Below are positions 45,261-62,000 of a stretch of 64,000 nucleotides of DNA, piece by piece; within the stretch, counting starts at the first letter, position 1, and each line of letters starts with the position of its first letter. The notes beneath the pieces are model-generated. The model was not told the origin of the DNA and did not search any database. It was given only the letters and a program-made list of their open reading frames with translations. The DNA comes from Methanoplanus endosymbiosus (GTDB lineage Archaea > Halobacteriota > Methanomicrobia > Methanomicrobiales > Methanomicrobiaceae). The position numbers were made by a program, and so were the translations under genes. The stretch is taken from assembly GCF_024662215.1 (NCBI RefSeq), contig NZ_CP096115.1:1860001-1924000 (forward strand), read 5' to 3'.

Positions 45261-47051
45261 TTATCTTTTTTGTGCGACGATAATAAGGAATTCCCCGTCT
45301 GCAAGACGGGAATCACTTCCGGGTACGGCAAGAGTTCCGTCACTGTTCACTCTCATGAAGGGTTTTGTCCCTTCAGGTGTTCCGCCATATTCTGGCTGTT
45401 CTCTGCTGTCAATGGCCCTGAAACTATATCCGTTCTCAAGCATCTCCAGCAGTTCATCCTCCATGCGACCAAAAAGGCCGTACGGAGTTTTCGCCAGTAT
45501 GTCAATTTTTCCTCCAAAAACCCTTCTGTCCTGCATATCCCGTGCCGTTCCGAATATGATCATATTTTCCGGTCCGACAGAGTCGATAAACGCGTCCTCC
45601 GCTGATCCGATGCTGTCTTTATTTGAAGAAGCTATCAGGAGCCACGCAATTTTCATTTTAAAAAAATGTGCATCGTCCAGAATTTCTTCATCCCCCAGAT
45701 CAACCAGAGAACCTGTATAGGATTCAAACGGTATCTTTCCGGAATCCGCAACACTCTGAAGTCTCTTACTGCCCGGTGCCAGTACCATAACCGTTGCTCC
45801 TGCTGTATGCAGGGCTGATGCCAGGTCGAGAGCCCAGCGCTGTTCCCCATAGATGGCAATTCCAACGGGTTCGGGGTCTGCAATCTTCAGCACACGGGAG
45901 AGGACAGGTGTTCCCAGTCCGTAGATAACTACTGTGGACAGTATCACAATGAAAACAACGGGGACCATTTCGGGGAAATTAACCCCCACTTCGTTTAAAT
46001 TAAGTGCGAATAATGAAGCAGTAGCCGCAGCTACAATACCCCGCGGGTGCAGAGCCCCGATAAATATCCGCTGTGCACGGCTGTAACCCAGACCATGAGT
46101 GGCCAGGAAGGCTACCAGCGGCCGGGCAATGAATACATATACCACTACCAGAGCCAGAGCGGGTAACAGATACTCTCCCATGGCAGAGAGATCAACCATT
46201 GCAGCCAGCATGATGAACAGAATGCCGATGATAAGCGGTTCAAGTGTTTCAGTCAGAACCCGTATGCTGCCAAACGGTGTCAGGGGCTGGTTTGCTATGA
46301 CAAAACCCATGGTTAACGCGGCGAAGAGACCTGCCTCTGAAAATATCAGTTCCCCTACGGTGATAACCACTATCCCCAGCATCAAAGCAATGAGGCCGCT
46401 GAGTCCTTTGGGTATATTGCGTGTACGATCCGCGTAAGTGTAGAAAAGAGCTGCCACAATACCAAGAATCACGCCCACTGCCATGGTCAGAAATATATCC
46501 AGGAACGGGTTCGGGTTCTCAGCAGTAATAAAGCTGATCGCGGCCACCGCAAGAGCAGCACCAATCGGGTCAATAATAATGCCTTCCCATTGCAGAACCG
46601 TGCCTACCGGTTCCTTTGGGCGGGCAAAGCTGAGGATTGGCCCAACCACGGTGGGACCGGATACTACCAGCAGGGCAGAGAGGAGAAATGCCAGCGGGAA
46701 AGGGACATTAAGAAGTAAGAGTGCGGCCGCAGTACCGATGGCCAGTGTCAAAACCGCCCCGGAAGTTACCAGCCGCCAGACAGAACGGCTCACACCGGAC
46801 TGCAGGTTATTCAGACGAAGTTCCAGTCCGCCCTTTAACAGTAAAATTCCAACACCAATTGTCACCAGTGGAAATAAGGCATCTCCAAAGATTTCCTGTG
46901 GATGTACCAGCCCCAGTACCGGGCCGGCAATCATACCGGCCGGCAGAAGAAGGAGGATTCCCGGAATTCTGAAGATCTTTGCCAGCCACTGCATTGAGAT
47001 GCCAAGACCGATGATCAGGCCCAGGCCAATATAAATAAATTCACTGCTCAT
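45261..47051 (-). CDS. CPA1-type Na+(K+)/H+ antiporter with C-terminal TrkA-N-like domain
   Basis: 596 aa. Twelve or so membrane helices fill residues 1-390 (SGPTVVGPILSFARP carries the TP-type motif of CPA1; EAGLFAALTMGFVIANQ). The C-terminal part (about 395-596) is a Rossmann-type regulatory domain (VGIAIYGEQRWALDLASALHTAGATVMVLAPG). Such proteins exchange sodium or potassium for protons across the membrane and help set internal pH and sodium gradients, important for methanogenesis. The start is ATG at 47051. A nested hairpin follows the stop. Confidence 0.9.
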   Translation of the reverse strand: MSSEFIYIGLGLIIGLGISMQWLAKIFRIPGILLLLPAGMIAGPVLGLVHPQEIFGDALFPLVTIGVGILLLKGGLELRLNNLQSGVSRSVWRLVTSGAVLTLAIGTAAALLLLNVPFPLAFLLSALLVVSGPTVVGPILSFARPKEPVGTVLQWEGIIIDPIGAALAVAAISFITAENPNPFLDIFLTMAVGVILGIVAALFYTYADRTRNIPKGLSGLIALMLGIVVITVGELIFSEAGLFAALTMGFVIANQPLTPFGSIRVLTETLEPLIIGILFIMLAAMVDLSAMGEYLLPALALVVVYVFIARPLVAFLATHGLGYSRAQRIFIGALHPRGIVAAATASLFALNLNEVGVNFPEMVPVVFIVILSTVVIYGLGTPVLSRVLKIADPEPVGIAIYGEQRWALDLASALHTAGATVMVLAPGSKRLQSVADSGKIPFESYTGSLVDLGDEEILDDAHFFKMKIAWLLIASSNKDSIGSAEDAFIDSVGPENMIIFGTARDMQDRRVFGGKIDILAKTPYGLFGRMEDELLEMLENGYSFRAIDSREQPEYGGTPEGTKPFMRVNSDGTLAVPGSDSRLADGEFLIIVAQKR

Positions 47052-47321
47052 TCAAATCATCACTGTCCGTCATGCACCTGCCTGCTTTTATCTCTCATAC
47101 AAATATTATCTTCTCTCCGGTTCCTGTTTTCTTTAACAATTTATATCTTTCATTTGATATTTGATCCGTTATTGTGTTATCTTAATTTAGGTATTATGTG
47201 ACATTCTATGAGGAAGCAATTCTGCCTTATTTTGATTAGATTTTATAATATGGGTAGAAAATGCTGAGTCCAGAGCTTAACTAAGATTTCATGTTGGTTA
47301 ATATTTCGTTATATCACTTTC

Positions 47322-47380
47322 TTCCCTGCTGTCCCGGCATTGCGCAGGGCCGCGACCGAAAGGCTCACAGTGGGTCTTTG
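47322..47380 (+). ncRNA. G+C-rich, stem-forming segment, possible structured RNA or leader
   Basis: A G+C-rich patch in an otherwise A+T-rich gap. CCCTGC (47324-47329) pairs with GCAGGG (47344-47349). GACC (47354-47357) could pair with GGTC (47373-47376), or CC-GAAA-GG (47356-47363) could form a small tetraloop. It ends about 64 bp before the MFS transporter ATG (47444) and might be a leader element. Only by-eye pairing supports it. Confidence 0.3.
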
Positions 47381-47443
47381 TCAGAATTAATACCAAACGA
47401 TTTCATAAGGTTTAACATTACATAGAAATTACTCTTTATATTG

Positions 47444-48916
47444 ATGGGAATTTTGCCTGGTAATAACAATAAGAATCCTTCAGGGGATTTCAGACAGAAA
47501 ATAATGCTCGCTACGGTCTGCTTCTCGATGCTTATGATATCGCTTAACAGCACAATCGTGTGCGTTGCCCTCCCTACGATTGCCGAATCGTATCATGTTT
47601 TTGCAGACGATGCCTCATGGGTGGTTCTCGCATATCTGCTGAGCCTTACAGGGACTCTTATCATATTCGGGCGGCTGGCGGACGTAAGCTCTCCAAAGCG
47701 GATATTTATAACCGGACTTGGAATCTTCGGGTTCTTTTCATTTATGTCCGCTTTTATGCCGAATCTGGAGCTGTTAGTCGCAGTCAGGTTCTGTCAGGGA
47801 ATCGGTGCAGCAATGCTTGTTTCTGTCGGCGGAATTATTGTCAACAGATTTTTACCTCAGGAATCAGCCGGGAAGAATCTTGGACTGATGACATGCGCAA
47901 TAGCTGTCGGTTATGTGGTCGGTCCGCCACTTGGGGGATTTATCAGCAATTTTCTCTCATGGAACTGGGTTTTTTTAATCAGCGTTCCTTTGGCAGTAAT
48001 TATACTGCTCATTGCCTCATTCATAATTCCGGAAATAAAAAAACAAAAAGAAGAAGGACTGCCAATCGATCTTCCTGCTTCGGCCCTTTTTTTTGCCGGC
48101 ATGATATTATCGGTTGTCCTTCTGTCATATGCTGATCATCTAATCAGAACCCCGCTCCTCATGGTGCTGATACTTGCCATTGCAGCAGCATGCTGGGTAA
48201 TATTTATCCGGAGGGAGAAAAGATCAAACTGTCCTCTTCTTCCCCTGCACCTTCTTGGCTCATCCGGGTTTGCACTTGCAATCCTGGTGTGCCTCGGAAA
48301 CGCCCAGATGGATGCAGGTTCGGTATATCTCTATCCGTTTTACCTTGAAATAGGAAAGGATCTTTCTGCATGGACCTCGGGACTTTTAATTTTGATCTTT
48401 GCAGCCGGCATGGGCATATTCGGATTTTTATACGGGAAAATTTCCGGTAAAAAAAGTTCGGAGCAGATCAGTATCATAGCTTCTGTGATCCTTTTGTTCT
48501 CATTTGCAGGTGCATTGATAAGTATGTTTTCTCCCGGCCTTTTTATGATTGCAGTCGCTCTGTTTCTCGGCGGTTCGGCAATCGGAATGCTTACAACCGC
48601 TAACAACCACATCATCACCGCAAAAACTCCGCCTGAATCACAGGGAGTTGTATGGAGTATGATAATGACGATAAGCGGTCTTGGCTCTGTCACGGGGATT
48701 GCGGTATTCGGCCTTCTGTTCAGCATATTTGTGGGTGATACACAAAAAACATCAGAGCTCACACAGGAGATTAATCCTGGTGGATTTGGTGTACTTTTTG
48801 TATACGGAATGATCGTCTCGATCCTGCTGATAATAGCAAACTACATTCTGGCAGGAGAGAAAAAAGATAAAAATGAAGGTAAAAATGAATTTGTGAAAGA
48901 AGAGATCAATACCTGA
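47444..48916 (+). CDS. MFS transporter, DHA2 (14-helix) drug/metabolite exporter type
   Basis: 490 aa from the ATG at 47444; a TTG three bases upstream is in frame. About 14 membrane helices. The helix-1 motif LNSTIVCVALPTIAESY and the loop motif (FGRLADVSSPKRIFITG) place it in the DHA2 drug/proton antiporter group; CQGIGAAMLVSVGGIIVNRF follows. It should export a hydrophobic or peptide-like compound using the proton or sodium gradient. It converges, 39 bp apart, on an ATP-grasp/methyltransferase gene, a pairing typical of small peptide natural products with their exporter. Confidence 0.9.
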   Translation: MGILPGNNNKNPSGDFRQKIMLATVCFSMLMISLNSTIVCVALPTIAESYHVFADDASWVVLAYLLSLTGTLIIFGRLADVSSPKRIFITGLGIFGFFSFMSAFMPNLELLVAVRFCQGIGAAMLVSVGGIIVNRFLPQESAGKNLGLMTCAIAVGYVVGPPLGGFISNFLSWNWVFLISVPLAVIILLIASFIIPEIKKQKEEGLPIDLPASALFFAGMILSVVLLSYADHLIRTPLLMVLILAIAAACWVIFIRREKRSNCPLLPLHLLGSSGFALAILVCLGNAQMDAGSVYLYPFYLEIGKDLSAWTSGLLILIFAAGMGIFGFLYGKISGKKSSEQISIIASVILLFSFAGALISMFSPGLFMIAVALFLGGSAIGMLTTANNHIITAKTPPESQGVVWSMIMTISGLGSVTGIAVFGLLFSIFVGDTQKTSELTQEINPGGFGVLFVYGMIVSILLIIANYILAGEKKDKNEGKNEFVKEEINT

Positions 48917-48955
48917 ATTCTGGAGATCTCATTATAATAAATCCTTTTCTGGCCG

Positions 48956-50866
48956 TTACGGTTTAATGCCTGATATGAACATTCTCTCAGAGTCTTCAGA
49001 AATATCCCCACCTTTTTCATCGATTATAGATATGTCCCCAAGTCCGCCTGCAATCATCATAATCCTGTACACTGAAGAGTAGGCACCGGCGGACTGCTCA
49101 CCGGGAAGACTGCTGCCCTCTCCCTGAGATACCGGAGCTTCAACAACCAGTTTTCCTCCCGATCTCAGGAAGGTTATGTACCTGCGAAGTGTGAGCGGAT
49201 CGCGTTTTTCATTGAACGGACCCGGTCCTGTCAATATAATGTCGAAGCGGCTTTCGAAGTCCATTTCATTCAGATCCAGGTTCAGGAACTCTCCGGGAAT
49301 ATTGTCGGCCTTAAACTTCTCCCTGGCTGTTCTGACGCTTTCAGCATTATTGTCTATTCCGGTAATCTTCAGCCCCTTTCCCGCGAGAACCCTGATCATT
49401 TCCCAGTCATTGCAGGGGCAATAGAGAAATTCCTCGCCGTCTTTGAGATTTAAATGAGTGAATATCAATTCTGCATCAGATCTGCACTCTTCCTGCTCTC
49501 TCACGATGCCGGATTTAAGGCTCTCTCTGAATACACTGTCTATGCCGGAATTTTCATCCGCCTTTTCATCGAGTTCATAAAGCCGGTCCTGTGCAAGATC
49601 TTCAAGATCAGATATTGTCCTGTAATCCGTAAGCAAAACATCTTCTACCGGGTGCTTGAGGAATATAAGCCCCGGAGCCGTCTGAAGATCAATGGTATCT
49701 TCAAGATTCCCCGACTCTATCAGATGGATCAGATTTCCGCTGTGCACACTGGGAAGTTCGCACAGCAGATCAAGAAGTGGGATCTCCTTCAGCTGCCCGC
49801 TCCTGCCTGATCTTAATACTTTCATCATCAGGTGATTTTTAATTGTATATTTATTTTCAATCTCCCCCATGAATTTTTCAGGATTCACGTAAGAATCAAT
49901 TGCAAGGTCCACCTGGTTCTGTCCGATGCACTCATCCATCAAATCGGGCGGCAGTGAACCCCCCATTACCCTTAAATTTGTTTCTATCAGTCTGGGGCCT
50001 GATTCGGTCATCATTATCTCCGTGTGTGTGGGTCCGCGTGTTACTTCAAGGGCTTCGAGAGTGCTGAGAGTATATGATATTATCTCATAAAGGGGATCTC
50101 CGGGTTCAGGGTACGGCAGGAGCCTTGCATAGTCATATATCTGCGAGATTCCGGGGAGGTAGATCTTTTTATATACCCAGAAATCGGTCAGGAGATGTCT
50201 TCCGTTGTAGCTTACGGTATTGACAATATATTCCGTGCCTTTAAGATACTCCTCCGCAAGCACAGTGTTGTTTTTATTCCCAAACAGATCGCTGGTTCCC
50301 GCCAGGTTATTCCATGCCGTTTGCAATTCCTCTTCATTCCTGCATATATGAACTCCTACAGTTGCTGCACCTTTGTTCGGTTTTATGACGATAGGCCATT
50401 TGCCAAGTTTTTCTGCCCATTTCAGGAGGTCGTCTTCAGATTCGGCTTCATGATATGCCATAGTGGGCACACCTGCCTCGGTCAGGGCCTTTTGCATCAG
50501 AAATTTATCCTTTCTTGCAGCACGTTTATTCCTGCCGTTTCCGGGCAGATTCAGCAATTCGGCAAGTGCTTCGGCAAATTCAACTCCGGAATCCGCTGCG
50601 GGGATAACTGCAGTAATATTACGGCCTTTCAGCTTCTCTGCAATCTCTTCCGGGTTGTTATCGCTGACCAGCCACTCTGAAAAGATATCTCCCAGTTTGT
50701 TCTTTGTCTCTTCCATCTCCAAGCGGAATACAGGTGACATATCAGGGGTGCTTACCACATGGATGATGTCGTAACCGCGATTGAAAAGTTTCACCGGAAA
50801 GAATTTTCCCGTGGAAAAAGCATCAATGATTACGACTGCAGGTTTTTGTTTGTCTGTCATGGTCAT
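48956..50866 (-). CDS. ATP-grasp ligase fused to a SAM methyltransferase-like domain
   Basis: 636 aa. The N-terminal about 420 residues are an ATP-grasp enzyme of the carbamoyl-phosphate-synthase/L-amino-acid-ligase type: PIVIKPNKGAATVGVHICRN (nucleotide loop) and the metal-binding ETNLRVMGG, preceded by a Rossmann pre-ATP-grasp part (AVIPAADSGVEFAEALAE). The C-terminal about 200 residues look like a class I methyltransferase (ITGIDNNAESVRTAREKF), although its motif I (FLYCPCNDWEMIRVLAGKG) lacks the usual DxGxG and may be degenerate. A dipeptide or amide ligase with attached methylation is the simplest reading. The neighbouring exporter supports a secreted product. The start is the ATG at 50866 (MTMTDKQKPAVVIIDAFS). 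Confidence 0.85.
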   Translation of the reverse strand: MTMTDKQKPAVVIIDAFSTGKFFPVKLFNRGYDIIHVVSTPDMSPVFRLEMEETKNKLGDIFSEWLVSDNNPEEIAEKLKGRNITAVIPAADSGVEFAEALAELLNLPGNGRNKRAARKDKFLMQKALTEAGVPTMAYHEAESEDDLLKWAEKLGKWPIVIKPNKGAATVGVHICRNEEELQTAWNNLAGTSDLFGNKNNTVLAEEYLKGTEYIVNTVSYNGRHLLTDFWVYKKIYLPGISQIYDYARLLPYPEPGDPLYEIISYTLSTLEALEVTRGPTHTEIMMTESGPRLIETNLRVMGGSLPPDLMDECIGQNQVDLAIDSYVNPEKFMGEIENKYTIKNHLMMKVLRSGRSGQLKEIPLLDLLCELPSVHSGNLIHLIESGNLEDTIDLQTAPGLIFLKHPVEDVLLTDYRTISDLEDLAQDRLYELDEKADENSGIDSVFRESLKSGIVREQEECRSDAELIFTHLNLKDGEEFLYCPCNDWEMIRVLAGKGLKITGIDNNAESVRTAREKFKADNIPGEFLNLDLNEMDFESRFDIILTGPGPFNEKRDPLTLRRYITFLRSGGKLVVEAPVSQGEGSSLPGEQSAGAYSSVYRIMMIAGGLGDISIIDEKGGDISEDSERMFISGIKP

Positions 50867-51048
50867 ATTCTCTAATTTTTAGTTTGTTCTGTTTTTAATT
50901 ATAATATTGTGGTCTGGCGATTAAAAACGGATTTTCAATTTGAAATTACAAAGATAACCGGATTTAGTCAGATTGAAGAGATCTGTCGCCTGTCAGTTGA
51001 AAATAGTCTATGAAAAAGTCCGGTTCCACGTTCAGATGGTAAAAAAAT

Positions 51049-51396
51049 TTATTTTATAAAATCTGAAAGTGCTTCATTATCCGAGTCGTAAAAATCAAAA
51101 ATATTGTTAAATCCGGATACAACGAATACATCCATGACAAAAGGTTTTAATCCGGATAATTTTATGTCTCCTCCTGATAGCTTTACTTTTTTCGATGCCA
51201 AAAGCATTACTCTAAGCCCCGAGCTGCTGATATAATCCACTTCATTCATATTGATTATAATCTTCTCAGAACCTGATTCTATGGCCTCTTTCAGATATTC
51301 ATCGAGAATACCGGAGTTTTGTGCATCTATCCTGCCTTTGACCATAATAATTTCAGCTGGTTCCGATTTTTTCCGGTTAATTTCCATGATATTCAT
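51049..51396 (-). CDS. STAS-domain anti-sigma-factor-antagonist-like protein
   Basis: 115 aa, a single STAS domain. The phosphorylation-site region is YISSSGLRVMLLASKKV, matching SpoIIAA-like proteins, and the glycine-rich end (VSGFNNIFDFYDSD) is complete. In bacteria these bind anti-sigma kinases. Archaea have no sigma factors, so the partner is likely another signalling or transport protein. Start ATG at 51396 or three codons later. No kinase or phosphatase gene is adjacent in this window. Confidence 0.85.
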   Translation of the reverse strand: MNIMEINRKKSEPAEIIMVKGRIDAQNSGILDEYLKEAIESGSEKIIINMNEVDYISSSGLRVMLLASKKVKLSGGDIKLSGLKPFVMDVFVVSGFNNIFDFYDSDNEALSDFIK

Positions 51397-51488
51397 TTTC
51401 TAATCGGAACAGATAATATCTTCCTGTTTTTTCAGTTATGCGAAAGGAATCATCATCTATTTATCATGTTTATGCAATTGTAATAATA

Positions 51489-53018
51489 ATGGCAGAACGG
51501 CAAATCTGGAGTTCACGAACGACATTTATTCTGGCATCAGTAGGCAGTGCTATCGGATTGGGAAATCTGTGGAGATTTCCTTATGTCGTTTACGCGAATG
51601 GTGGGGGGGCTTTTCTCATTCCTTACCTGATCGCACTTCTCACTATAGGGATTCCTCTTCTTATTCTAGAGATGGGAATCGGCTACAGGACTCGATCCGG
51701 TGCTCCCCGTGCCTTCAGCAGGCTACTTGGCAGGAAGTATAACCTGTTCGGATGGATGATGGTTCTGGTCGCATTTTTAGTTGTTACATATTACGGAGTG
51801 ATCGTCGCCTGGTGCCTTGATTATACTGTTTTCTCTCTCAATCTTTCATGGGGTTCCGATCCACCGGCTTTCTTTTATGATTCCTTTCTAAACGTTTCGG
51901 ATGCTGTTGATGGGATCGGCAGTATCAACATTGTTGTTTTAGGTGGAGCGATCGTTGCATGGCTCTGGATTTACACATCCGTATTCAGGGGTGTCAAATC
52001 ATTAGAGAAGATGCTCTGGATCACTGTGGTTCTGCCCTGGATTCTTATCATTGTTTTCGTGGTCCGCGGCATCACGCTTCCGGGTGCGATGGACGGGCTT
52101 GCCTTTTACCTTACGCCCGATTTCCAGGCACTTCTGAATCCGGATGTCTGGGTTGCGGCATACGGCCAGATCTTTTATTCACTCTCACTTGCATTTGGGA
52201 TAATCATCGCATATTCACGTCTTATCGGTGAAAAGCAGGATCTCGTGAAGAACGGAGTCATCATCGCCCTGGCTAATTGTTTCACCTCGATCTTTGCCGG
52301 GCTTGCGGTATTTTCCACTCTTGGATATCTTGCACATACCAGTGGTGTTGGAGTAACTGAAGTCGTGAGAGGAGGAATTGAACTGGCCTTCATCACTTAC
52401 CCGTCCGTTATAAATGCCCTTCCTATTATGCCCGAACTATTTGGCGTTCTTTTCTTCCTGATGCTTGTAAATCTTGGTATAAGCTCGTCTTTTTCCATAG
52501 TTGAGAGTCTGAATGCCGGAATTCTGGATTACATAAAAAAGCCGGAATGGCTGGTAACAGGTGTGATCTGTATAGCTGCGTTTATAGTAGGCCTCATTTA
52601 TATGACGAATGGGGGTCTGTATATGATTGACCTTGTAGACCACTATCTGATGGCTTACATCCTGCCGTTTATCGGGCTTTTAGAGGTGGTATTCATAGGA
52701 TATCTCTATGGTGCCCCAAAAATGAGGACCTTTATCAACAGGTACTCAGATCTTCATCTGGGCAGGTGGTGGGATTACTGCATTTGTTTTGTCGTGCCCG
52801 GTTTTCTGATCTTCGCTCTTTGTCTTAACTTCTATGAAGGTATATTCCAGCCTTATGGAGGTTATGAAATGCTTGACAATATAATCGTATACCTGCTTAT
52901 CGGCGTGATTTTTATTCTTGCAATATTCATGTCCAGGCTTATCCGTAATAGTGATGATGATGATTATGATGATGATGCGGACTCCTACCTGCCGGGAGAT
53001 ATGGATTCAGATATTTGA
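51489..53018 (+). CDS. Neurotransmitter:sodium-symporter (NSS/SNF) family transporter
   Basis: 509 aa from the ATG at 51489 (MAERQIWSSRTTFILASVGS). Upstream in-frame residues to 51438 are not family-like. The first membrane segment carries the LeuT/NSS signature ASVGSAIGLGNLWRFPYVVYANGGGAFLIPYL, which builds the sodium and substrate sites. About 11-12 helices. The C-terminus is a very acidic tail (DDDDYDDDADSYLPGDMDSD). It probably carries an amino acid with sodium into the cell; the substrate is unknown. Methanogens often use such carriers for compatible solutes or amino acids. Confidence 0.93.
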   Translation: MAERQIWSSRTTFILASVGSAIGLGNLWRFPYVVYANGGGAFLIPYLIALLTIGIPLLILEMGIGYRTRSGAPRAFSRLLGRKYNLFGWMMVLVAFLVVTYYGVIVAWCLDYTVFSLNLSWGSDPPAFFYDSFLNVSDAVDGIGSINIVVLGGAIVAWLWIYTSVFRGVKSLEKMLWITVVLPWILIIVFVVRGITLPGAMDGLAFYLTPDFQALLNPDVWVAAYGQIFYSLSLAFGIIIAYSRLIGEKQDLVKNGVIIALANCFTSIFAGLAVFSTLGYLAHTSGVGVTEVVRGGIELAFITYPSVINALPIMPELFGVLFFLMLVNLGISSSFSIVESLNAGILDYIKKPEWLVTGVICIAAFIVGLIYMTNGGLYMIDLVDHYLMAYILPFIGLLEVVFIGYLYGAPKMRTFINRYSDLHLGRWWDYCICFVVPGFLIFALCLNFYEGIFQPYGGYEMLDNIIVYLLIGVIFILAIFMSRLIRNSDDDDYDDDADSYLPGDMDSDI

Positions 53019-53146
53019 GGGATGGTTTTCTCATGGGAAAGAGTGAAATGCCGGAGTTCATAAGCAATTGCCTGCGGAGAATTAGGTTGTGTCCTAAGAT
53101 AGCATACCTTATTGTGTGATGAATGACATATATTTATGTGATACAT

Positions 53147-54112
53147 ATGGCTCGCCCACGTGGAAAAATAGATGTTGTCTGCCAAAATCCTGAGTGTCAA
53201 TATTATCTCAAAGAGGAAGGAAAGGATATAATCAAACGAGGAAAAGATGCCAGAACTTCTCATCAACGATATTACTGCAAACACTGTACAAAATTTTTCA
53301 TGGAAACTAAAGGTACTCCCCTATTCTACAAACACCTATCTGAAAAAGAAATTATAACCATTTGCAAGCATTTTGTGGAGAAAAATGGAATAAGAAGCAT
53401 CGAAAGATTAACGGGTCACCACCGCGATACAATTGGACGGTTGCTTACTGATGTAGCTGAGCATGCAGCAAAGATGAATGATATACTCATTGAAGAACTT
53501 GATCTAAGCCCTATAGAATGCGATGAGTTCTGGAGTTTCATTAAAAAAAAACAAAAAAATGTTGTCAAAGAAAGCTCAGAACCAGATTTCGTTGGCGATG
53601 CATGGACATACACAGCAATAAAACGAAAATCCTATTTTATAATTTCTTTTGCAGTTGGAAAACATAAACAAGCAACCTGTAATGTCATGATGAATGACCT
53701 TTATGAAAGAATTAAGCTCCCTGATCCACAATCAAAACTTGAAATTTATACTGATGGGAATGACCAATATCTGACAAGTTTAAATGCTCTTTACGCTAAT
53801 CCCTGCGTTAACTATGGTCAGTTAATAAAAGTCCGGAAAAAGGGGAGAGTTGAAGAAAAATACAAAATTGCAGTTATTGGTGAGCCGCCGTTATCCAAAA
53901 TTGAAACTACTGATGTTGAAAATTCTAATGGAATCCTTCGTGAAAGAGTTGGCCGTTTGGTGAGAAAAGCGAAGACATTCTCAAAGTTAAAACCAAAATT
54001 AGAATCAGCATTAGATATTTTTCAATTTTATTGGAATTTTATGAATGAATTCAAGAAAAAATCTACACCAGGAATGATTGAAGGTATAATAGGACTTACG
54101 CGAAACGATTAA
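53147..54112 (+). CDS. IS1-like DDE transposase
   Basis: 321 aa from the ATG at 53147 (MARPRGKIDVVCQNPEC); an upstream ATG at 53123 is possible. An N-terminal zinc ribbon (CQNPEC, then YYCKHC) and a helix-turn-helix region (GIRSIERLTGHHRDTIGRLL) precede the catalytic core. The core acids are D in ECDEFWSF, D in YTDGNDQY and E in VENSNGILRERV, as in IS1-type enzymes of archaea. The C-terminus (TPGMIEGIIGLTRND) enters an inverted repeat at 54089. It marks the left edge of an A+T-rich region that continues with the BREX-like operon. The left end of the element could not be defined, so functionality is uncertain. Confidence 0.82.
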   Translation: MARPRGKIDVVCQNPECQYYLKEEGKDIIKRGKDARTSHQRYYCKHCTKFFMETKGTPLFYKHLSEKEIITICKHFVEKNGIRSIERLTGHHRDTIGRLLTDVAEHAAKMNDILIEELDLSPIECDEFWSFIKKKQKNVVKESSEPDFVGDAWTYTAIKRKSYFIISFAVGKHKQATCNVMMNDLYERIKLPDPQSKLEIYTDGNDQYLTSLNALYANPCVNYGQLIKVRKKGRVEEKYKIAVIGEPPLSKIETTDVENSNGILRERVGRLVRKAKTFSKLKPKLESALDIFQFYWNFMNEFKKKSTPGMIEGIIGLTRND

Positions 54113-54203
54113 TTTGTAAACTCAATGAGCCTAACAATAAACCAAAATAATCATTTGCAGTTTCCAAACATTTAAGTCAAGTTTTGTACTGCGTAAGTCC
54201 TAT
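54089..54203 (+). mobile_element. 115-bp inverted-repeat element, possible MITE
   Basis: Perfect 13-bp ends: ATAGGACTTACGC at 54089-54101 and its complement at 54191-54203. ATA is found directly outside both ends, a possible short target duplication. The interior has no gene. It overlaps the last codons and stop of the IS1-like transposase, so it either inserted there or belongs to that element's right end. Confidence 0.5.
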
Positions 54204-54357
54204 ATAATTGATAGAAAGATTACATGGCCAGTATTTTTACATTCAATAATTAAGTATGTTAATTGGTGCCACTGCCGAAAATTTAAGCACATAGATCTAA
54301 AGTGGGCTTGAAATTGAATAATGATGGCATATTTCCCACTATTTATAATCTGATGAG

Positions 54358-54515
54358 ATGCCTTATTTAATTTTCATGTCTCATAAGGCATTTTATCATA
54401 AAAAATGGTCCGTAAATTAGCCATTTATTAAGGTTCTGTGCCTAAATATGACAGGTAGTTAGTTTGTAATTACCCAGAAACTAATATATTATTCTCTGCA
54501 ACTAATATATATTAG
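54358..54515 (+). promoter_or_regulatory. Promoter/operator region of the BREX-like operon
   Basis: Contains ATGCCTTAT/ATAAGGCAT (54358-54366 and 54383-54391), able to form a hairpin, and a repeated ACTAATATAT (54480-54489, 54501-54510). A perfect 14-bp palindrome CTAATATATATTAG (54502-54515) includes a TATA-like core about 50 bp before the first gene. A control protein could bind here. The 54112-54563 gap holds no gene. Confidence 0.45.
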
Positions 54516-54563
54516 ATTAATTGAAGTGGGTGGTTAAAAATTACAATTTTTGATTATTCTGAG

Positions 54564-56666
54564 GTGTTTGGCAAGTTAAAGAGAATTTATTTCTGGAATC
54601 GTTTGTCGGAGACTCAGGTAAATATACATGTTGATAAATCTGTAATACGCTACAATGGTTTGGTGCTGCCAGTTAGGATGCGTCCTTTTTTTGATGCAGA
54701 ATTTTTAAATCCAGGTGGTATATTGGAAATTAGTCTGATTCATGAGAATAGTGGGATTAAATACAGTTCTTGCATCCGGAGGGCAAATAATTTAGATGAA
54801 AATCAAATATCACCTACACGTATATATTGGGATGAAGCACTTAGTGATCTAATTGAATATTTAATTTTGGATGGGAATGATGTCTTAATATTAAAATTTA
54901 TAAAATTTACATTGGTTAAAAATAAGTATTATATTAATATTGGACGCAGTGATTTGCAATCTGGAAATGATCAGTTTAAGCGTCTAATTTCAAATCATGA
55001 AGATCCTGTGCTGCCTAAAATTATTAATAATTCTCAGGAAAACATTGTTGAACATCCACTCGCAAAACCAGATACGGTGGCAGGGTCTCATTTCAAGCAG
55101 ACGATTTATGAGGCGTGTGAACCTGAAATTAATGGAAATCGAATTAAGATGGAGTATGAAAAAATCCTTTGTCAAAATAAATTATCTCATAAATATAAAT
55201 TATATGCAAAAGTTCTCACAAAACAATTTCCACGAGGAATAAATCTCAATAATCAGCTTCAGGTTGTCAGGTGCATGGTTGCATTTAAAAAAGCTTTTTT
55301 TGAAAATTATAACGAAGAATGGACCGGGGATTACGATCAATTTATCAAGGATATTATAGAGATAACTGTTGCATGTGATGATACGACAATGTTGTCAATA
55401 ACATCATTAAATATTTCTGATTCCTTACTAAATGAGATAATTGTTCATGTTAATAATCTTTTTGAGTCAGGGGAAGCGATTGTTTCTTCTGATGAACTTT
55501 ATATCAAGTTTAAGCAAAGGTTACTCCAGACAAATATTTACAATTCCACCACGCTAGAGAATGTTGTTAGATACTATATAGGGGGTAAATACAATTTCAC
55601 TGATGGTTATATTTGTTCCCAAGAATTGTCCAGTATAGATGGTTATATTTTTGATAAAGTGTTAGCGGCACTTCTGAAATTTTCCGGTCCAATGTCTTAT
55701 GAGGAACTTATACGTACACTCCCCCATTTTCCTGATGAGAAAATTAGGGACTGCCTTAAAAGTTCCTCTAAAGTTATCAGAGGGAAGAAAGGATATTATA
55801 CTCATATCGATTGTTTTGATATTACGTTGCAAGATAAGGAGTTGCTCCTTACAACTATTAATGATAATATGCAAGATAATGTAATTACCACTGCGGGTCT
55901 TTTTGATGCATATCTGGCAATTAACCCTGATTTCTTTGATCGAAATTTCATAACTGATATCGTGTCGCTTAGTGACATTTTCAAATATTGTTATCCATCA
56001 AAATATACTCATAAACGTGGGCAGATAATTTTTGGAGACGGATTAATTCTCAGTTCAACCGAGAAGGTGGTACGTCATCTTATGTCAATGAAATCTTTCA
56101 CGTATCATGATATGGATGAATACAAAAATTCAAACCATTATAACGTTGATTGTCGAGGGGTTCTTAAACCAATCTTAAAAAAATATTTTCGCCTTGATGA
56201 AAATCGGTTTATTTCAATCGATCAAATAATTATTTCAGAGAACGTATTAAATGGTATTGAAAATTTGCTCATGGATGAATTAAAAATGGGGTATGTCTGT
56301 TCTGCAAATATCAAAAATTATCTATCATATCCATATATTGGATCTAATCCATGTACCCCATATCTTCTTGAGAGTATTATTAGGATTTACGGCAGCAAAT
56401 TCAGATGTCCATTGAAACTCATTGAGTATTATACTGGCTGCAAAAAACCCCGAGGAATTATTGTTATATTGGACTCAGATTTTACCACTTATGAGGATGT
56501 CCTGATAGATGTTCTAAAAAAGCAAAACAGCCGGGAACCATTTGAAAATCAAATGAAAGCAATAGAATATCTTAAAGAGAGAAATTATATGCAAACTGCT
56601 TTACGAGATGGATTCTCAAGCATCTACTCAAAAGCGATTGCTAAATACGATTTTTTTGGTATATAA
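54564..56666 (+). CDS. Unknown 700-aa protein, first gene of the BREX-like operon
   Basis: 700 aa, GTG start at 54564. The frame continues upstream without a stop to 54525, and a GGTGG site at 54529-54533 precedes an in-frame ATT, so the true start is uncertain. The N-terminal 130 residues are strand-rich (PVRMRPFFDAEFLNPGGILE, then SPTRIYWDEALSDLIEYLIL). The rest seems to be helical, with repeated winged-helix-like units (LLKFSGPMSYEELIRTLPHF and similar). I recognise no family and no catalytic motif. The stop abuts the next ATG without a gap, so it is part of the operon. It could be a target-recognition, regulatory or effector component. Strongly A+T-rich codons, as in the rest of the operon. 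Confidence 0.8.
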   Translation: MFGKLKRIYFWNRLSETQVNIHVDKSVIRYNGLVLPVRMRPFFDAEFLNPGGILEISLIHENSGIKYSSCIRRANNLDENQISPTRIYWDEALSDLIEYLILDGNDVLILKFIKFTLVKNKYYINIGRSDLQSGNDQFKRLISNHEDPVLPKIINNSQENIVEHPLAKPDTVAGSHFKQTIYEACEPEINGNRIKMEYEKILCQNKLSHKYKLYAKVLTKQFPRGINLNNQLQVVRCMVAFKKAFFENYNEEWTGDYDQFIKDIIEITVACDDTTMLSITSLNISDSLLNEIIVHVNNLFESGEAIVSSDELYIKFKQRLLQTNIYNSTTLENVVRYYIGGKYNFTDGYICSQELSSIDGYIFDKVLAALLKFSGPMSYEELIRTLPHFPDEKIRDCLKSSSKVIRGKKGYYTHIDCFDITLQDKELLLTTINDNMQDNVITTAGLFDAYLAINPDFFDRNFITDIVSLSDIFKYCYPSKYTHKRGQIIFGDGLILSSTEKVVRHLMSMKSFTYHDMDEYKNSNHYNVDCRGVLKPILKKYFRLDENRFISIDQIIISENVLNGIENLLMDELKMGYVCSANIKNYLSYPYIGSNPCTPYLLESIIRIYGSKFRCPLKLIEYYTGCKKPRGIIVILDSDFTTYEDVLIDVLKKQNSREPFENQMKAIEYLKERNYMQTALRDGFSSIYSKAIAKYDFFGI

Positions 56667-59039
56667 ATGTACAAATATGAATGGGATCCAGAAACAGGTG
56701 GATATCTACTTACAACAACTTCTGAAAGTATTGTTGGAAAAGAACTCCGGCCGGTATATTCTTCTGAATTAGATTTACTAGGATTTAACAAATATTGGAC
56801 TTATCCAAGAGATGATACAAAACCTTTGCTCTGGGCAGAAAATAACTTATATTATTATTTAGGAAGAATTGTTGGTAAAACGAGTGGTGGAAGTCTCTAT
56901 AACCGACCTACACTCATAATTATTGAGGATGGATTGGAATTAACCTTTGTAGATGTAGCACTAATGGTGAATAAAAATCGTGTCATAATGGATGCTCTTG
57001 TTCATGATACACTTCTCACGATCTATGCTACATACCAACAGTTCAAAAATAACATTGATATTTTTTACGTTGCATTCAGTGGAGGAAAAGATTCAATAGT
57101 TGCACTTGATTTAGTACATCGTACTCTTCCAAAAAATGAATTTCTGGTTTTGTTTGGAGATACAGACATGGAACTTCCAGATACATACTTGTTTATGAAT
57201 GTTATATCAAAATTTTACAACGATATTTCCTTCCATGTGGCCCGTGCTGAAATAACCTCTGTCGAATCTTGGAATATATTTGGTCCCCCAGCACGTGGTA
57301 TTCGCTGGTGTTGCAGTGTGCATAAGACAGCTCCACAAATTAGGTATTTGCGTAATTTATTTAAAAAATCAAACGTAAGAGGGATGGCTTTTACGGGAAT
57401 CCGGGCAGAAGAAAGTAATGCCCGTTTCTTATATGACATGGTGAGTGTCAGTAAAAAGCACCCTGGACAGGCAAGTTGCCATCCAATTCTTCAATGGAAT
57501 TCTGCGGAGCTTTTCCTATATATCTATGGTAATAATCTCCCCCTCAACGAAGCATATAAAAAAGGGAATTCGCGCGTAGGTTGTCTATTATGTCCGATGT
57601 CTGGAGGGAAACATGAGTTCATCAAGATGTCTTGTTATCCAGATGTGATGACAAAATACATAGACATAATTCGGAATACCAGTTCAAAAACCTTTGATCG
57701 ATTATCAGATATGGATCACTTCATAGAAGATGGTGGATGGAAAATACGTTGTTCTGGACGTGAAATAAAAACTGGTAAAAACCTTATAGATGTGATAAGT
57801 AACAAAAAAGAGCTAAGAATCATCTCCAAATGTCCGGCGGATGACTGGAGTGAATGGATAAAAGCACTAGGGGAGTTCTGCCAAATAGATAACAATTGCT
57901 ATCTTGTAACATACAATAATGCGACATATCATTTTACTGTTACCAAAAATGAAAACCAGTCTTTGGAAGTGATTTTGCCACTAATTGGGGGAGGTAAAAG
58001 TGAAATTTATTTTGTTTCACTATTCAAAAATGTTTTTCGCAAAGCTGCCTATTGCAGAAGATGCGGAGTATGTGCAGCAGAATGTAAGTTTGGATGTATC
58101 ACTATGAACCCAGACTCTATGAAAATTGATGGCAATGAATGCAAACATTGTGCTCAATGTCTAAAAATTAAATACGGATGCTTAATATGTTCGTCAATAA
58201 AATTACCATTAAGCAAAGGGACTGAAAAAATGGTTGGAATGGATAGATATATGACATTTGGATTCCGGAAAGAATGGCTTGATTCATATTTCAAAGATCC
58301 TGATAAATTCTGGGATCATAATGATTTAGGAAGTAAGATGATTCCGGTATTCAAAAAATTTTTACGGGATGCAGGGATTATCTCTGGAAAAAGAGATCTT
58401 ACACTTACCAGAACAGGACAACTGCTCAGGTCTATAGGTTCAGATTCTGAGGTTACATGGGCAATTATTCTGGTTAATCTCTCATACACTCCTCAAATTG
58501 GATGGTATGTAAGAAATATTGTTCCTGGTACCAGTTATACAATGCAAGATCTCAAGGCGCTCCTTCCCGAAGATATCAAAGACACAGTGAAACGCAATAT
58601 TGTGAGTGCTTACCGTAATATTATGGTACAAACTCCGATTGGAAGCCAGATTGGACTTGGTCACCCTCAAAAATCCGGTTCAAATGTAAAATATTTGGAG
58701 AGAATAAAATGGGAAAATCCGATTCCTGAAGTAATATTATATGCCTTCTACAGATATGCAGAAGAAAATATTCAGGAAGATGATAGTATTCGTGACAATG
58801 TTAACTACCGGTTTACATTAACCGAGATCTTATCCGAAGATCCAGACATTTCCGGATTGAGTCCCTCACAGATATTTGATATTGATAGAGATACATTCAG
58901 GCACATTCTTGAAGGGTTGTCTATTGAGTATTCAGAGTATATTTCAACTTCTTTTACCCATGATTTAGACAATATTGTTCTTTCTCAAAATAAAACATCA
59001 GAAGAGATTCTTGAAAATGTCATGGTGGCGATAAAATGA
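56667..59039 (+). CDS. brxP: BrxP-like PAPS-reductase/ferredoxin/DUF4007-like fusion
   Basis: 790 aa. After an N-terminal part (1-130), a PP-loop adenylyl-binding domain has AFSGGKDSIVAL (138-143 core), with cysteines at 215-216 (GIRWCCSVHK), 271 and 306/309 (VGCLLCP) that could hold an Fe-S cluster, as in DndC-type and archaeal PAPS reductases. A ferredoxin-like module follows (463-508: CRRCGVCAAECKFGC, CKHCAQCLKIKYGCLIC). The C-terminal about 250 residues resemble DUF4007 (FGFRKEWLDSYFKD, LTRTGQLLRSIG, WYVRN). Type 4 BREX carries a PAPS-reductase protein at this place. The fold suggests sulfur activation or DNA phosphorothioation, which is inferred. The gene starts directly after the 700-aa gene and overlaps brxC by 4 bp. 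Confidence 0.85.
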   Translation: MYKYEWDPETGGYLLTTTSESIVGKELRPVYSSELDLLGFNKYWTYPRDDTKPLLWAENNLYYYLGRIVGKTSGGSLYNRPTLIIIEDGLELTFVDVALMVNKNRVIMDALVHDTLLTIYATYQQFKNNIDIFYVAFSGGKDSIVALDLVHRTLPKNEFLVLFGDTDMELPDTYLFMNVISKFYNDISFHVARAEITSVESWNIFGPPARGIRWCCSVHKTAPQIRYLRNLFKKSNVRGMAFTGIRAEESNARFLYDMVSVSKKHPGQASCHPILQWNSAELFLYIYGNNLPLNEAYKKGNSRVGCLLCPMSGGKHEFIKMSCYPDVMTKYIDIIRNTSSKTFDRLSDMDHFIEDGGWKIRCSGREIKTGKNLIDVISNKKELRIISKCPADDWSEWIKALGEFCQIDNNCYLVTYNNATYHFTVTKNENQSLEVILPLIGGGKSEIYFVSLFKNVFRKAAYCRRCGVCAAECKFGCITMNPDSMKIDGNECKHCAQCLKIKYGCLICSSIKLPLSKGTEKMVGMDRYMTFGFRKEWLDSYFKDPDKFWDHNDLGSKMIPVFKKFLRDAGIISGKRDLTLTRTGQLLRSIGSDSEVTWAIILVNLSYTPQIGWYVRNIVPGTSYTMQDLKALLPEDIKDTVKRNIVSAYRNIMVQTPIGSQIGLGHPQKSGSNVKYLERIKWENPIPEVILYAFYRYAEENIQEDDSIRDNVNYRFTLTEILSEDPDISGLSPSQIFDIDRDTFRHILEGLSIEYSEYISTSFTHDLDNIVLSQNKTSEEILENVMVAIK

Positions 59040-62000
59040 TGAGTAATAATATGACTGATATTGTATATGATAATTTTTTTGAAATTGATCCAAATTATTT
59101 CCCTATGATGACAGAAGAACTCATCAAATCTGAAGATGGTAAATGGAAGGGATTCTACCCACATGAAAAATTTGTAGAGTTAATTAAACATACTGTAAAT
59201 ACGCTCAATCGTCACGAAAAACAATCTCTCTGGGTCACAGGGGCATATGGTACAGGTAAGTCTCATGCAGTTCTGACGATAAAATGTATGCTTGAAGCGA
59301 AAAGAGAGGATGTAACCGAGTATTTTGAAAAGAATGATCTCGATATGGATCTCTGCAGTCGCCTTAACAACCTAAAAGGACAAGGGCATATTCTCACCGT
59401 TTACCGGAATGGATCTGCAAGTATTGACTCAACAGCAGCTCTCACTCTTGCAATTCAGAGCAGTATTAAAAAGGCACTGGAAGAGCAGGGTATTGAAAAT
59501 AAATCAAATATTACATTAAAAGAGACAATTGTCAATAGATTAACTACAAAAAAAATTTATTCAGATTATATTGACAAATTAATGCAGGAAAAATACAACT
59601 ATCTCTTTTCACCCTATTCTAATGTTACAAGTTTTCTTGAGGCAATTCAAAACTCTGATGATGAAATATCAAATCAGCTTATCAATAAATATCTCAATAT
59701 GCTCAATATGGAGGGGATAAGTGGACATCCTATCGAACCAAATGATTTAGTTCGGTGGATAGATGAAGTTCTCAAGGCAAATAACTTAACTTCTATTTTC
59801 TTTATCTGGGATGAGTTCACTGAATTTTTCAAGATCAATCAAAATAAACTCACAGGTCTTCAGGAAATTGCGGAATCTACACAACATATGCCATTTGTTC
59901 TGATGCTGGTTACCCATATTTCCGGAAAACAATTGCCATTAGGTGATTCCAAAAAAATTTCCGATCGCTTTGCTCCTCCAATTGAGATATGTCTGCCAGA
60001 TAATACCGCGTTTAAACTCATGGGAAAAGCACTTGCAGTAAAGGATAATCAGGAGGTTTGTTCACAGTGGCAAACCCTTAGAAGTGAACTTTGGAGTAAT
60101 GTATGCAATTCGGGCAAGCTTGTTATCAGATCAACAAATAATAAAGTGACAGAAAATGATTTTAAGGAAATATTACCGATCCACCCATATGCAGCTCTGA
60201 TTCTTAAACATCTATCCGCCCGTTTCAATTCCAATCAAAGAAGTATGTTTGAGTTCATAAAAGGAGGGGATGTTAAATCAGAATCCATAAGTTTCAAATC
60301 ATTTATTCACCAAACCGGACCTTTCTCCCCTATTCCATATCTTACTTGTGACAAATTATGGGATTACTTCTACAGTAGTGACAAAGCCCGATTAGATACA
60401 GAACTTAAGGATTTATTGAACACATACAATATTCATAAAGACAACAAGGCATTTGATTCAGATACATTATTGATCTTAAAAACAACCCTACTTCTTCAGG
60501 GTCTTTCAAATCAAGCATGGAATGTCCCGATACTGAAGCCAACACTGAATAATTTGACATATGCCTTTGAAGGAACCGATCTCGCAAAAGTTCGAATAGA
60601 ACAGATCCTTGAGATTCTTATAGGAAATGGTGTTTTATCTTCGCATCCCGGCAAAAATAGTGAAATAGAATATGTCGCTCTTCGTGCTAACAGTGACACT
60701 GCGGTAATCAGTCAGTTAGTGCAGGAAATGTCAAAAAAATATACAACACTGGAACTTATTCAAAAGAACAATGATCTCGATAAGTTATTTGAATTACCCG
60801 AGGAGCTCTCTCTTCGGTATGAATCATCATATTTAACGATCACTAACATTGACGCTGCATTAAAACGTAAAGTAAATAATCCTCCAAACAAAATTCGATT
60901 GTTTTTCACATTTGCTAAAGATGATCAGGAAGCAAGCATCATTAATGAAAAAATCCAGAATTTCCTATCGGCATGTTTGGATTCTGGAATAATTATTGTA
61001 GACACGTCATTATCTTCGCTTAAATCCAAAAATTATGATGATATTATTGAATGTCTGGCAAATGTGCGTTACTGGAAAGATAAGAATATTTCAAAACAAG
61101 TTACCGCATATGATAGTCGAGTAACTGATATCATTAATCAATGGAATAAGGAACTCATAAATGGAGTATTCGTTCTCTATGATTCTTCTCATAATGGACA
61201 GAAATTCTATAGTTTTGATTTACTTACAAGGCAACTAAGGCAGATCAATGAAGAACGTTTCCCGAAAGGTATTGAACGTCTTTCCAATTCGAAGACACTG
61301 CGTACTATCCAACAATCAAAGAGAGGAGCAATTATGGCGGCATCTGGTGGTGAGAAACCATCCGGAATGTTTAATTCTCTTGTCCAGCCTCTTTCTGAGA
61401 TCTGGACTGATAATTATTATTGGGGGCATGCACCAGATCATCTCTTATCACAGATTAAAAATGAACTTAAAATTTTCATGGATAAGAGGTTTACTAAAGA
61501 TGGAAAGGTAGACATATACGATATATGGGACTTTCTGACACGTCCGCCCTATGGATTTCTCCCATGTAGTTTAAGTGCTTTTGTTCTTGGTTTCCTTCTT
61601 CGGGAATATGCAAATGACCAGTACACCTGGTCTAACGGCTCAATAGCAGAGCCAATGTCAGCTGAAAAGCTTGGAGAACTCATAGATGGTGCCATAAAAT
61701 CAATTCCTGGAAATCGTCCGTCTTCTCGATATATTGTACAAATGACTGAGGAAGAAAAAGAATTCATGAATTCTTCTGCGTTCGTATTTAATGTCCCTTC
61801 CGTCCAGTGTACTTCAATTGAAAATACCCGTAACAAGATCATTAATGCAATAAATGGACTTCGGTATCCACTTTGGGCATTAAAAAACTACATCGACTCA
61901 CAAAATACTACACAAAAAGATCTTCTCAAAAATATCATTGATGATTACTGCTCTATTTCAAGTAGTTCCCCAGATGCCAAAAAGGTAGTTAAAGCAAAAG

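What the first reader, a model, noticed from the sequence alone, without database searches (positions are those of the whole stretch)
47444..50866. ATP-grasp/methyltransferase fusion facing an exporter: possible minimal natural-product pair
Seen: a 636-aa ATP-grasp plus methyltransferase-like protein and a DHA2-type MFS exporter with convergent ends 39 bp apart. Known: L-amino-acid ligases of the ATP-grasp fold make dipeptides and are often linked to exporters. Inferred: a secreted methylated peptide or amide, rare in methanogens.
Basis: partly seen in the sequence, partly recalled or inferred. Interest (0 to 1): 0.6.

Follow-up and report, generated by a model that had tools for sequence, protein, structure and literature searches.

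The report
Methanogen peptide ligase and exporter pair
A methane-producing archaeon carries two facing genes, an enzyme of the kind that joins two amino acids and a pump of the kind that exports small molecules; the pairing recurs in relatives, but the methylating half of the enzyme looks worn out here, so the product is probably a small peptide without the predicted methyl group.

Summary
Confirmed: a 490-aa MFS transporter (47444-48916 +) and a 636-aa ATP-grasp/methyltransferase-fold protein (48956-50866 -) converge 39 bp apart. The ATP-grasp half belongs to NCBIfam PRK07206; the five best structural matches are L-amino-acid ligases, and catalytic residues are intact. The pairing is real: of 232 genomes of the order three have the fusion, and only these have this transporter at 55% identity or more. 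Methanoregula-type genomes have the ligase without methyltransferase, followed by a different MFS, in 6 of 6. The cassette was recently exchanged between two sister species: dS 0.03-0.06 against 0.20-0.65 in 12 other genes. 'Methylated' is weak here: the C-terminal domain keeps the class I methyltransferase fold but has lost the motif I Asp and first Gly, kept by all nine relatives outside the genus; the Methanospirillum copy looks intact. Best reading: a secreted, NRPS-free dipeptide or amide module whose methyltransferase-derived domain has decayed in Methanoplanus. Product, reaction and transport direction are untested. New variant of a known kind.

The parts
47444..48916 (+). MFS transporter, 490 aa, EmrB/DHA2-like; candidate exporter of the product
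   Evidence: relatives at 55% identity or more only in the genomes with the fusion
48917..48955 (.). 39-bp gap between the two convergent stop codons
48956..50866 (-). Fusion protein, 636 aa: N-terminal ATP-grasp L-amino-acid-ligase-type enzyme, C-terminal methyltransferase-fold domain
49577..50866 (-). ATP-grasp ligase part, residues 1-430; K121, K162, H281, E283, E295 and R299 invariant in 18 aligned sequences
48959..49459 (-). Class I methyltransferase-fold domain, residues 470-636
   Evidence: altered motifs
49397..49432 (-). Altered SAM-binding motif I, residues 479-490 (LYCPCNDW region): Asp to Tyr and first Gly to Asn
51049..51396 (-). STAS-domain (anti-sigma-factor-antagonist type) protein, 115 aa, 182 bp upstream of the fusion on the same strand; possible regulator; shares the low-divergence tract
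   Evidence: not the orthologue of the Methanoregula operon STAS
51438..53018 (+). Sodium:neurotransmitter-symporter-family transporter, neighbour; link to the module uncertain

Best explanation
The unit is a minimal, NRPS-independent amide-forming module. The ATP-grasp half activates the carboxylate of one amino acid (or amino-acid-like acid) as an acyl phosphate and joins it to the amine of a second, giving a dipeptide or amide. The facing MFS protein exports it. The C-terminal domain comes from a class I SAM methyltransferase that, in an ancestor like the Methanospirillum protein, modified substrate or product; in Methanoplanus it keeps fold and reading frame but has lost key cofactor-binding residues and probably no longer methylates, perhaps serving as a structural or substrate-docking domain. 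Shown: domain make-up, intact ligase residues, altered motif I, co-occurrence, recent exchange. Inferred: reaction, export direction, loss of methylation, role of the domain.
For: Ligase: NF005543 PRK07206 332.3 bits, cut-off 302; phmmer best hit a solved L-amino acid ligase, 30vh, 197 bits; VIA Z 30.0-32.9 for L-amino-acid ligases 3vot, 3wnz, 3vmm, 3wo1, 4wd3 against 28.1 or less for purine enzymes; K121, K162, H281, E283, E295, R299 invariant in 18 sequences. Pair: fusion in 3 of 232 genomes; transporter at 98% and 55% identity in the other two of these, next best 32%; STAS-GNAT-ligase-MFS on one strand in 6 of 6 Methanoregula-type genomes. Kin in biosynthetic settings: ligase-C-A-T-TE NRPS protein with an MFS next to it, A-PCP plus asparagine synthase, MatE plus MR_MLE. 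Domain: fold Z 20.8 to the methyltransferase NmbA, motif I altered.
Against: No product, activity or transport direction is known. The genes are convergent, not an operon. In the third genome (Methanospirillum MAG) the two genes lie on separate short contigs, so adjacency there is unknown. Two of the three genomes are sister species, so there are only two independent lineages. The EmrB cut-off is not met.
Confidence: 0.6

Rival explanations
1. The methyltransferase domain is still active despite the altered motif I, and the module makes a methylated peptide or amide.
For: Fold fully kept (Z 20.8 to NmbA, rmsd 2.7, 181 aligned); frame open in both species with dN/dS 0.23 over residues 426-636 (6 synonymous, 5 non-synonymous changes); the Methanospirillum domain keeps the motifs; some viral methyltransferases carry a similar PCGDW loop.
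Against: Asp and first Gly of motif I are lost in both Methanoplanus sequences and kept by the nine other rows and the nine other rows; the NSFGYF segment and an insert of about 35 residues are missing; the best PDB sequence match is 26 bits against 80.6 for the Methanospirillum domain.
Confidence: 0.15
2. Self-protection or detoxification: the ligase conjugates a toxic amino acid or xenobiotic and the MFS pumps it out.
For: Closest transporter models are drug-efflux families; the Methanoregula operon adds a GNAT acetyltransferase with weak similarity to ArsN1.
Against: Bacterial kin sit with biosynthetic enzymes; no further resistance-type gene seen among the neighbours scanned.
Confidence: 0.15
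3. Osmoadaptation: the ligase makes a dipeptide-type compatible solute, and neighbouring channels and symporters handle ions and solutes.
For: MscS (40389), Na+/H+ antiporter (45261) and SNF symporter (51438) nearby.
Against: In two same-family genomes the NhaP relative does not sit beside SNF or the pair; NhaP and SNF relatives are far from each other elsewhere in the family; a drug-efflux-like pump is not expected for a retained solute.
Confidence: 0.1
4. Chance neighbours: a ligase of unrelated function beside one of about ten MFS genes.
For: Convergent orientation; this genome has 10 MFS_1 matches.
Against: Shared distribution of both genes in 3 of 232 genomes; independent ligase-MFS operon in Methanoregula-type genomes; shared low-divergence tract.
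Confidence: 0.07

Closest known systems
[quoted passage not shown] solved ligase 30vh)
   Same: Same domain over residues 9-423; NF005543 cut-off met; same fold class and invariant residues
   Different: DdaF equivalog cut-off not met (208.6 of 840 bits); carries a C-terminal methyltransferase-fold domain; archaeal clade of its own (94/88; fusion clade 100/98)
BacD/YwfE, RizA and BL00235 L-amino-acid ligases
   Same: Best structural matches, Z 30-33
   Different: Only 16-18% identity; bacterial gene settings differ (recalled)
EmrB/DHA2 multidrug exporters
   Same: MFS_1 and best match to EmrB-type models
   Different: EmrB subfamily cut-off not met; own subfamily, nearest outside the three genomes 32% identical
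Methyltransferase-Ddl fusions of Methanomicrobiales and other Halobacteriota
   Same: Class I methyltransferase joined to an ATP-grasp ligase; the nearest methyltransferase relatives found
   Different: Reverse domain order, D-Ala-D-Ala-ligase-type ATP-grasp, intact motif I

Membership tests
L-amino-acid ligase (PRK07206 group) | Sequence over the curated family cut-off | tested here: met
   NF005543 332.3 bits, cut-off 302
L-amino-acid ligase (PRK07206 group) | ATP-grasp fold closest to L-amino-acid ligases | tested here: met
   Top five VIA rows, Z 30.0-32.9, rmsd 3.0-3.7, 370-405 aligned
L-amino-acid ligase (PRK07206 group) | Conserved ATP/Mg and catalytic residues | tested here: met
   K121, K162, H281, E283, E295, R299 invariant in 18 of 18; their roles are recalled, not tested
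L-amino-acid ligase (PRK07206 group) | ATP-dependent amide bond formation between amino acids | not testable with these tools
   needs enzyme assay
Dapdiamide A synthase DdaF | NF041595 equivalog cut-off | tested here: not met
   208.6 bits, cut-off 840
Class I SAM-dependent methyltransferase | Class I methyltransferase fold | tested here: met
   Z 20.8 to 9ri2 (rmsd 2.7, 181 aligned), 19.9 to 1wzn (rmsd 3.2, 180 aligned); model pLDDT 73.6
Class I SAM-dependent methyltransferase | Motif I with Asp/Glu and glycine loop | tested here: not met
   Asp to Tyr and first Gly to Asn; only the two Methanoplanus rows of 11 depart, one of 10
EmrB/DHA2 exporter | TIGR00711 subfamily cut-off | tested here: not met
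   137.6 bits, cut-off 230.2
EmrB/DHA2 exporter | 14 transmembrane helices | tested here: inconclusive
   crude hydropathy did not resolve the count
EmrB/DHA2 exporter | Export rather than uptake | not testable with these tools
   needs transport assay

The most novel reading that the evidence does not exclude
Methanogens of the order Methanomicrobiales make and secrete a family of NRPS-free dipeptide or amide natural products by an ATP-grasp ligase coupled twice, independently, to different MFS exporters; in one branch the ligase absorbed a methyltransferase, which in Methanoplanus turned into a non-catalytic domain that now shapes ligase specificity, and the cassette passes between species as a unit.
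Probability: 0.3. Interest if true: 0.65.

Novelty: new variant of a known kind. Interest (0 to 1): 0.42.

Why it matters
Small-molecule natural products of methanogens are little known (my own knowledge). The series Methanoregula (no methyltransferase), Methanospirillum (intact-looking fusion) and Methanoplanus (altered fusion) lets the gain and loss of a tailoring domain be tested directly.

Tried and rejected
Osmolyte idea from the neighbours MscS, NhaP and SNF: not supported by same-family genomes. Empty-site test: NhaP relatives (87-90%) in G105 and G106 and SNF relatives elsewhere do not form an uninterrupted version of the locus, so no insertion event could be shown. STAS as a shared orthologous partner: rejected; the window STAS is nearest to a paralogue elsewhere in the genome (64%) and 26-35% identical to the Methanoregula operon STAS. 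The 248-270-aa methyltransferase near the Methanoregula operon as a split form of the fused domain: no match to it at E 1e-3 with that protein as query, and only E 0.009 the other way; a different subfamily. My home-made MFS profile missed bacterial MFS genes that Pfam then found, so its count is not used. Viral contigs hold no match to the fusion's patterns. An RNA fold across the gap between the genes is no better than shuffles (z 0.93). Sigma-70 promoter and terminator scans gave chance numbers and do not apply to archaea. The hydropathy helix count was unusable. Gene calls L025:7414-8940 and L119:809-2785 by my simple caller were wrong frames; the MFS in L025 was recovered by tblastn, L119 was dropped from the methyltransferase-Ddl count. 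In the whole-model fold searches the methyltransferase domain gave no rows of its own; it was folded and searched alone.

Papers: passages seen of PMC11237513, PMC12568646, PMC11867202 and PMC4149034; all others in search listings only. Searches for this architecture or for methanogen ligase-exporter modules listed nothing that by title or start of abstract describes it; most subscription papers are not held.

Full report
OBSERVATION. The window holds an MFS gene at 47444-48916 (+, 490 aa) and a 636-aa gene at 48956-50866 (-), converging with 39 bp between the stop codons. Pfam finds MFS_1 in the first (183 bits) and several ATP-grasp models plus a weak Methyltransf_25 match (28.5 bits, profile positions 12-97 of 97) in the second. 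The genome is one contig of 3,163,021 bases. Its sister genome G120 (fusion 97%, MFS 98% identical) has 3,200,946 bases, the published size of Methanoplanus limicola DSM 2279 (PMC4149034, passages seen); that the window is another Methanoplanus species is my inference.

THE LIGASE. NCBIfam places residues 9-423 in PRK07206 (332.3 bits, cut-off 302), not in the DdaF equivalog (208.6, cut-off 840). The best PDB sequence match is an L-amino acid ligase, 30vh, 197 bits. The predicted structure (mean pLDDT 80.3) matches L-amino-acid ligases best: 3vot, 3wnz, 3vmm, 3wo1 and 4wd3 at Z 32.9-30.0, then purine enzymes at 28.1 and below. In an alignment of 18 relatives K121, K162, H281, E283, E295 and R299 are invariant; their catalytic roles are recalled. 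By sequence and by fold the enzyme is therefore nearer to L-amino-acid ligases than to primary-metabolism ATP-grasp enzymes.

THE METHYLTRANSFERASE-FOLD DOMAIN. Folded alone (pLDDT 73.6) it is a class I methyltransferase fold (9ri2 NmbA Z 20.8, rmsd 2.7, 181 aligned). The Methanospirillum fusion (L020, the same contig as L030) scores 65.1 bits with Methyltransf_25 over positions 1-97, against 28.5 over 12-97 for the window. In 11 aligned domains only the window and G120 lack the motif I Asp and first Gly; in a wider set of 10 only the window lacks them. The NSFGYF segment and about 35 residues further on are also missing. Against the PDB the Methanospirillum domain reaches 80.6 bits and the window domain 26. 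The domain is in frame in both species; dN/dS over residues 426-636 is 0.23, from only 6 synonymous and 5 non-synonymous changes, so purifying selection is suggested, not shown. Some viral relatives carry a similar PCGDW loop with Asp and Gly kept, so the Trp alone is no sign of decay.

CO-OCCURRENCE. In 232 genomes of the order, 13 have a ligase match at E 1e-10, the window's own included. Only three match over both domains: the window, G120, and G205, a MAG that is 64% complete (43% identity), whose contig is a Methanospirillum record (L030). The transporter search over the same 232 genomes gives 98% (G120), 55% (G205) and then 32-33% and less. So both genes share one distribution, in two independent lineages at most. 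In G205 they lie on separate short contigs; its MFS is followed on the same strand by an amino-acid permease. In six genomes of genus g34 (Methanoregula by the titles of L031, L032 and L042) the ligase lacks the methyltransferase and is flanked on one strand by STAS and GNAT genes upstream and a 409-414-aa MFS downstream, in 6 of 6, counting L025 where the MFS was recovered by tblastn (domains scanned for the L023 copies). That MFS is only 20-24% identical to the window's in the five loci that gave a blastp match, so the ligase-MFS pairing probably arose twice. Two further genomes of that genus (G193, G194) carry ligase copies matching only to residue 333.

BACTERIAL KIN. A scan of genome contigs returned 33 loci; the only one matched over both domains was the Methanospirillum one. 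With Pfam I scanned some neighbours, or the ligase protein itself, at 13 of the 33 loci, one to four proteins each. Transporters were seen at 7 of the 13: MFS at L036, L051, L053, L055 and L056, MatE at L035, EamA at L044. None was seen at the other 6, most of which had only one protein scanned. In Elusimicrobia the ligase is fused to a C-A-T-TE NRPS (1843 aa, L036) with the MFS next. A gammaproteobacterium (L040) has a separate small methyltransferase directly downstream. Literature passages show that ATP-grasp ligases of this general kind take part in making dapdiamides (PMC12568646) and phosphonoalamides (PMC11867202).

EVOLUTION. A tree of 26 ligase domains gives an archaeal clade (94/88) split into the fusion clade, which also takes in the divergent second G205 copy (100/98), and the Methanoregula-type clade (100/100). 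Between the two Methanoplanus genomes dS is 0.061 (MFS), 0.049 (fusion) and 0.029 (STAS, only 2 synonymous changes), 0.109 for the NhaP and SNF neighbours, and 0.197-0.653 for the 12 other window genes that could be paired; a STAS paralogue elsewhere gives 0.33. This valley points to recent recombination centred on the cassette.

STAS. A STAS gene lies 182 bp upstream of the fusion on the same strand, and a STAS gene begins the Methanoregula operon in 6 of 6 genomes, but the two are not orthologues and this genome has five STAS matches. Regulation by a partner-switching protein is possible, not shown.

MECHANISM. Most likely the ligase makes a dipeptide or amide through an acyl phosphate (established for the family, not shown here), the MFS exports it, and the C-terminal domain no longer methylates in Methanoplanus. 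Product, direction of transport and the role of the domain are open. I rate the whole 0.6, with active methylation at 0.15, detoxification 0.15, osmolyte 0.1 and chance 0.07; the first of these overlaps with the best reading in all but the domain.

NOVELTY. The ligase-exporter logic is known in bacteria. What is new is the archaeal setting, the methyltransferase fusion with its apparent decay, and the two different MFS partners. My paper searches listed no description of it. I call it a new variant of a known kind.

Noticed in passing
L116, L117, L118, L120, L121, L122, L123: A family of 630-800-aa proteins in Methanomicrobiales and other Halobacteriota genomes with an intact N-terminal class I methyltransferase and a C-terminal D-Ala-D-Ala-ligase-like ATP-grasp; 7 of 7 scanned show both domains. 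Function unknown to me.
   Followed up: partly
L021:1285-2613 (G205:C241): A second ligase-family protein in the Methanospirillum MAG that has lost the IKP lysine and the conserved arginine near E295 and gives no Pfam match at 1e-5: a likely pseudo-ligase.
   Followed up: partly
window 45261-53018: Synonymous divergence from the sister species drops to 0.03-0.11 in this stretch against 0.20-0.65 for 12 other genes of the window, a likely recent recombination tract ending where similarity to G120 stops at about 53 kb.
   Followed up: partly
L036:7980-14709; also L037, L038, L039: In Elusimicrobia one 1842-1849-aa protein joins the ligase to a full NRPS module C-A-T-TE; in L036 it overlaps an MFS gene (domains and MFS scanned for L036 only, size for all four).
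   Followed up: no
L022-L027: Methanoregula-type operon STAS-GNAT-ligase-MFS with a divergent 538-547-aa protein that has no Pfam match (L023 copy) and looks by eye like a winged-helix plus TPR regulator.
   Followed up: partly
window 53123-63229: To the right of the tract: a 329-aa ORF that by eye resembles a transposase (no Pfam match), then three large ORFs (700, 790 with PAPS_reduct, 1397 aa), two without Pfam matches; perhaps a mobile or defence-type island, not matched in G120 at this place.
   Followed up: no
L114:555-3438 (G205:C105): The 55%-identical MFS is followed on the same strand by an amino-acid permease; Methanoplanus has an SNF symporter near its pair, so amino-acid-type uptake genes lie close by in both.
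   Followed up: no
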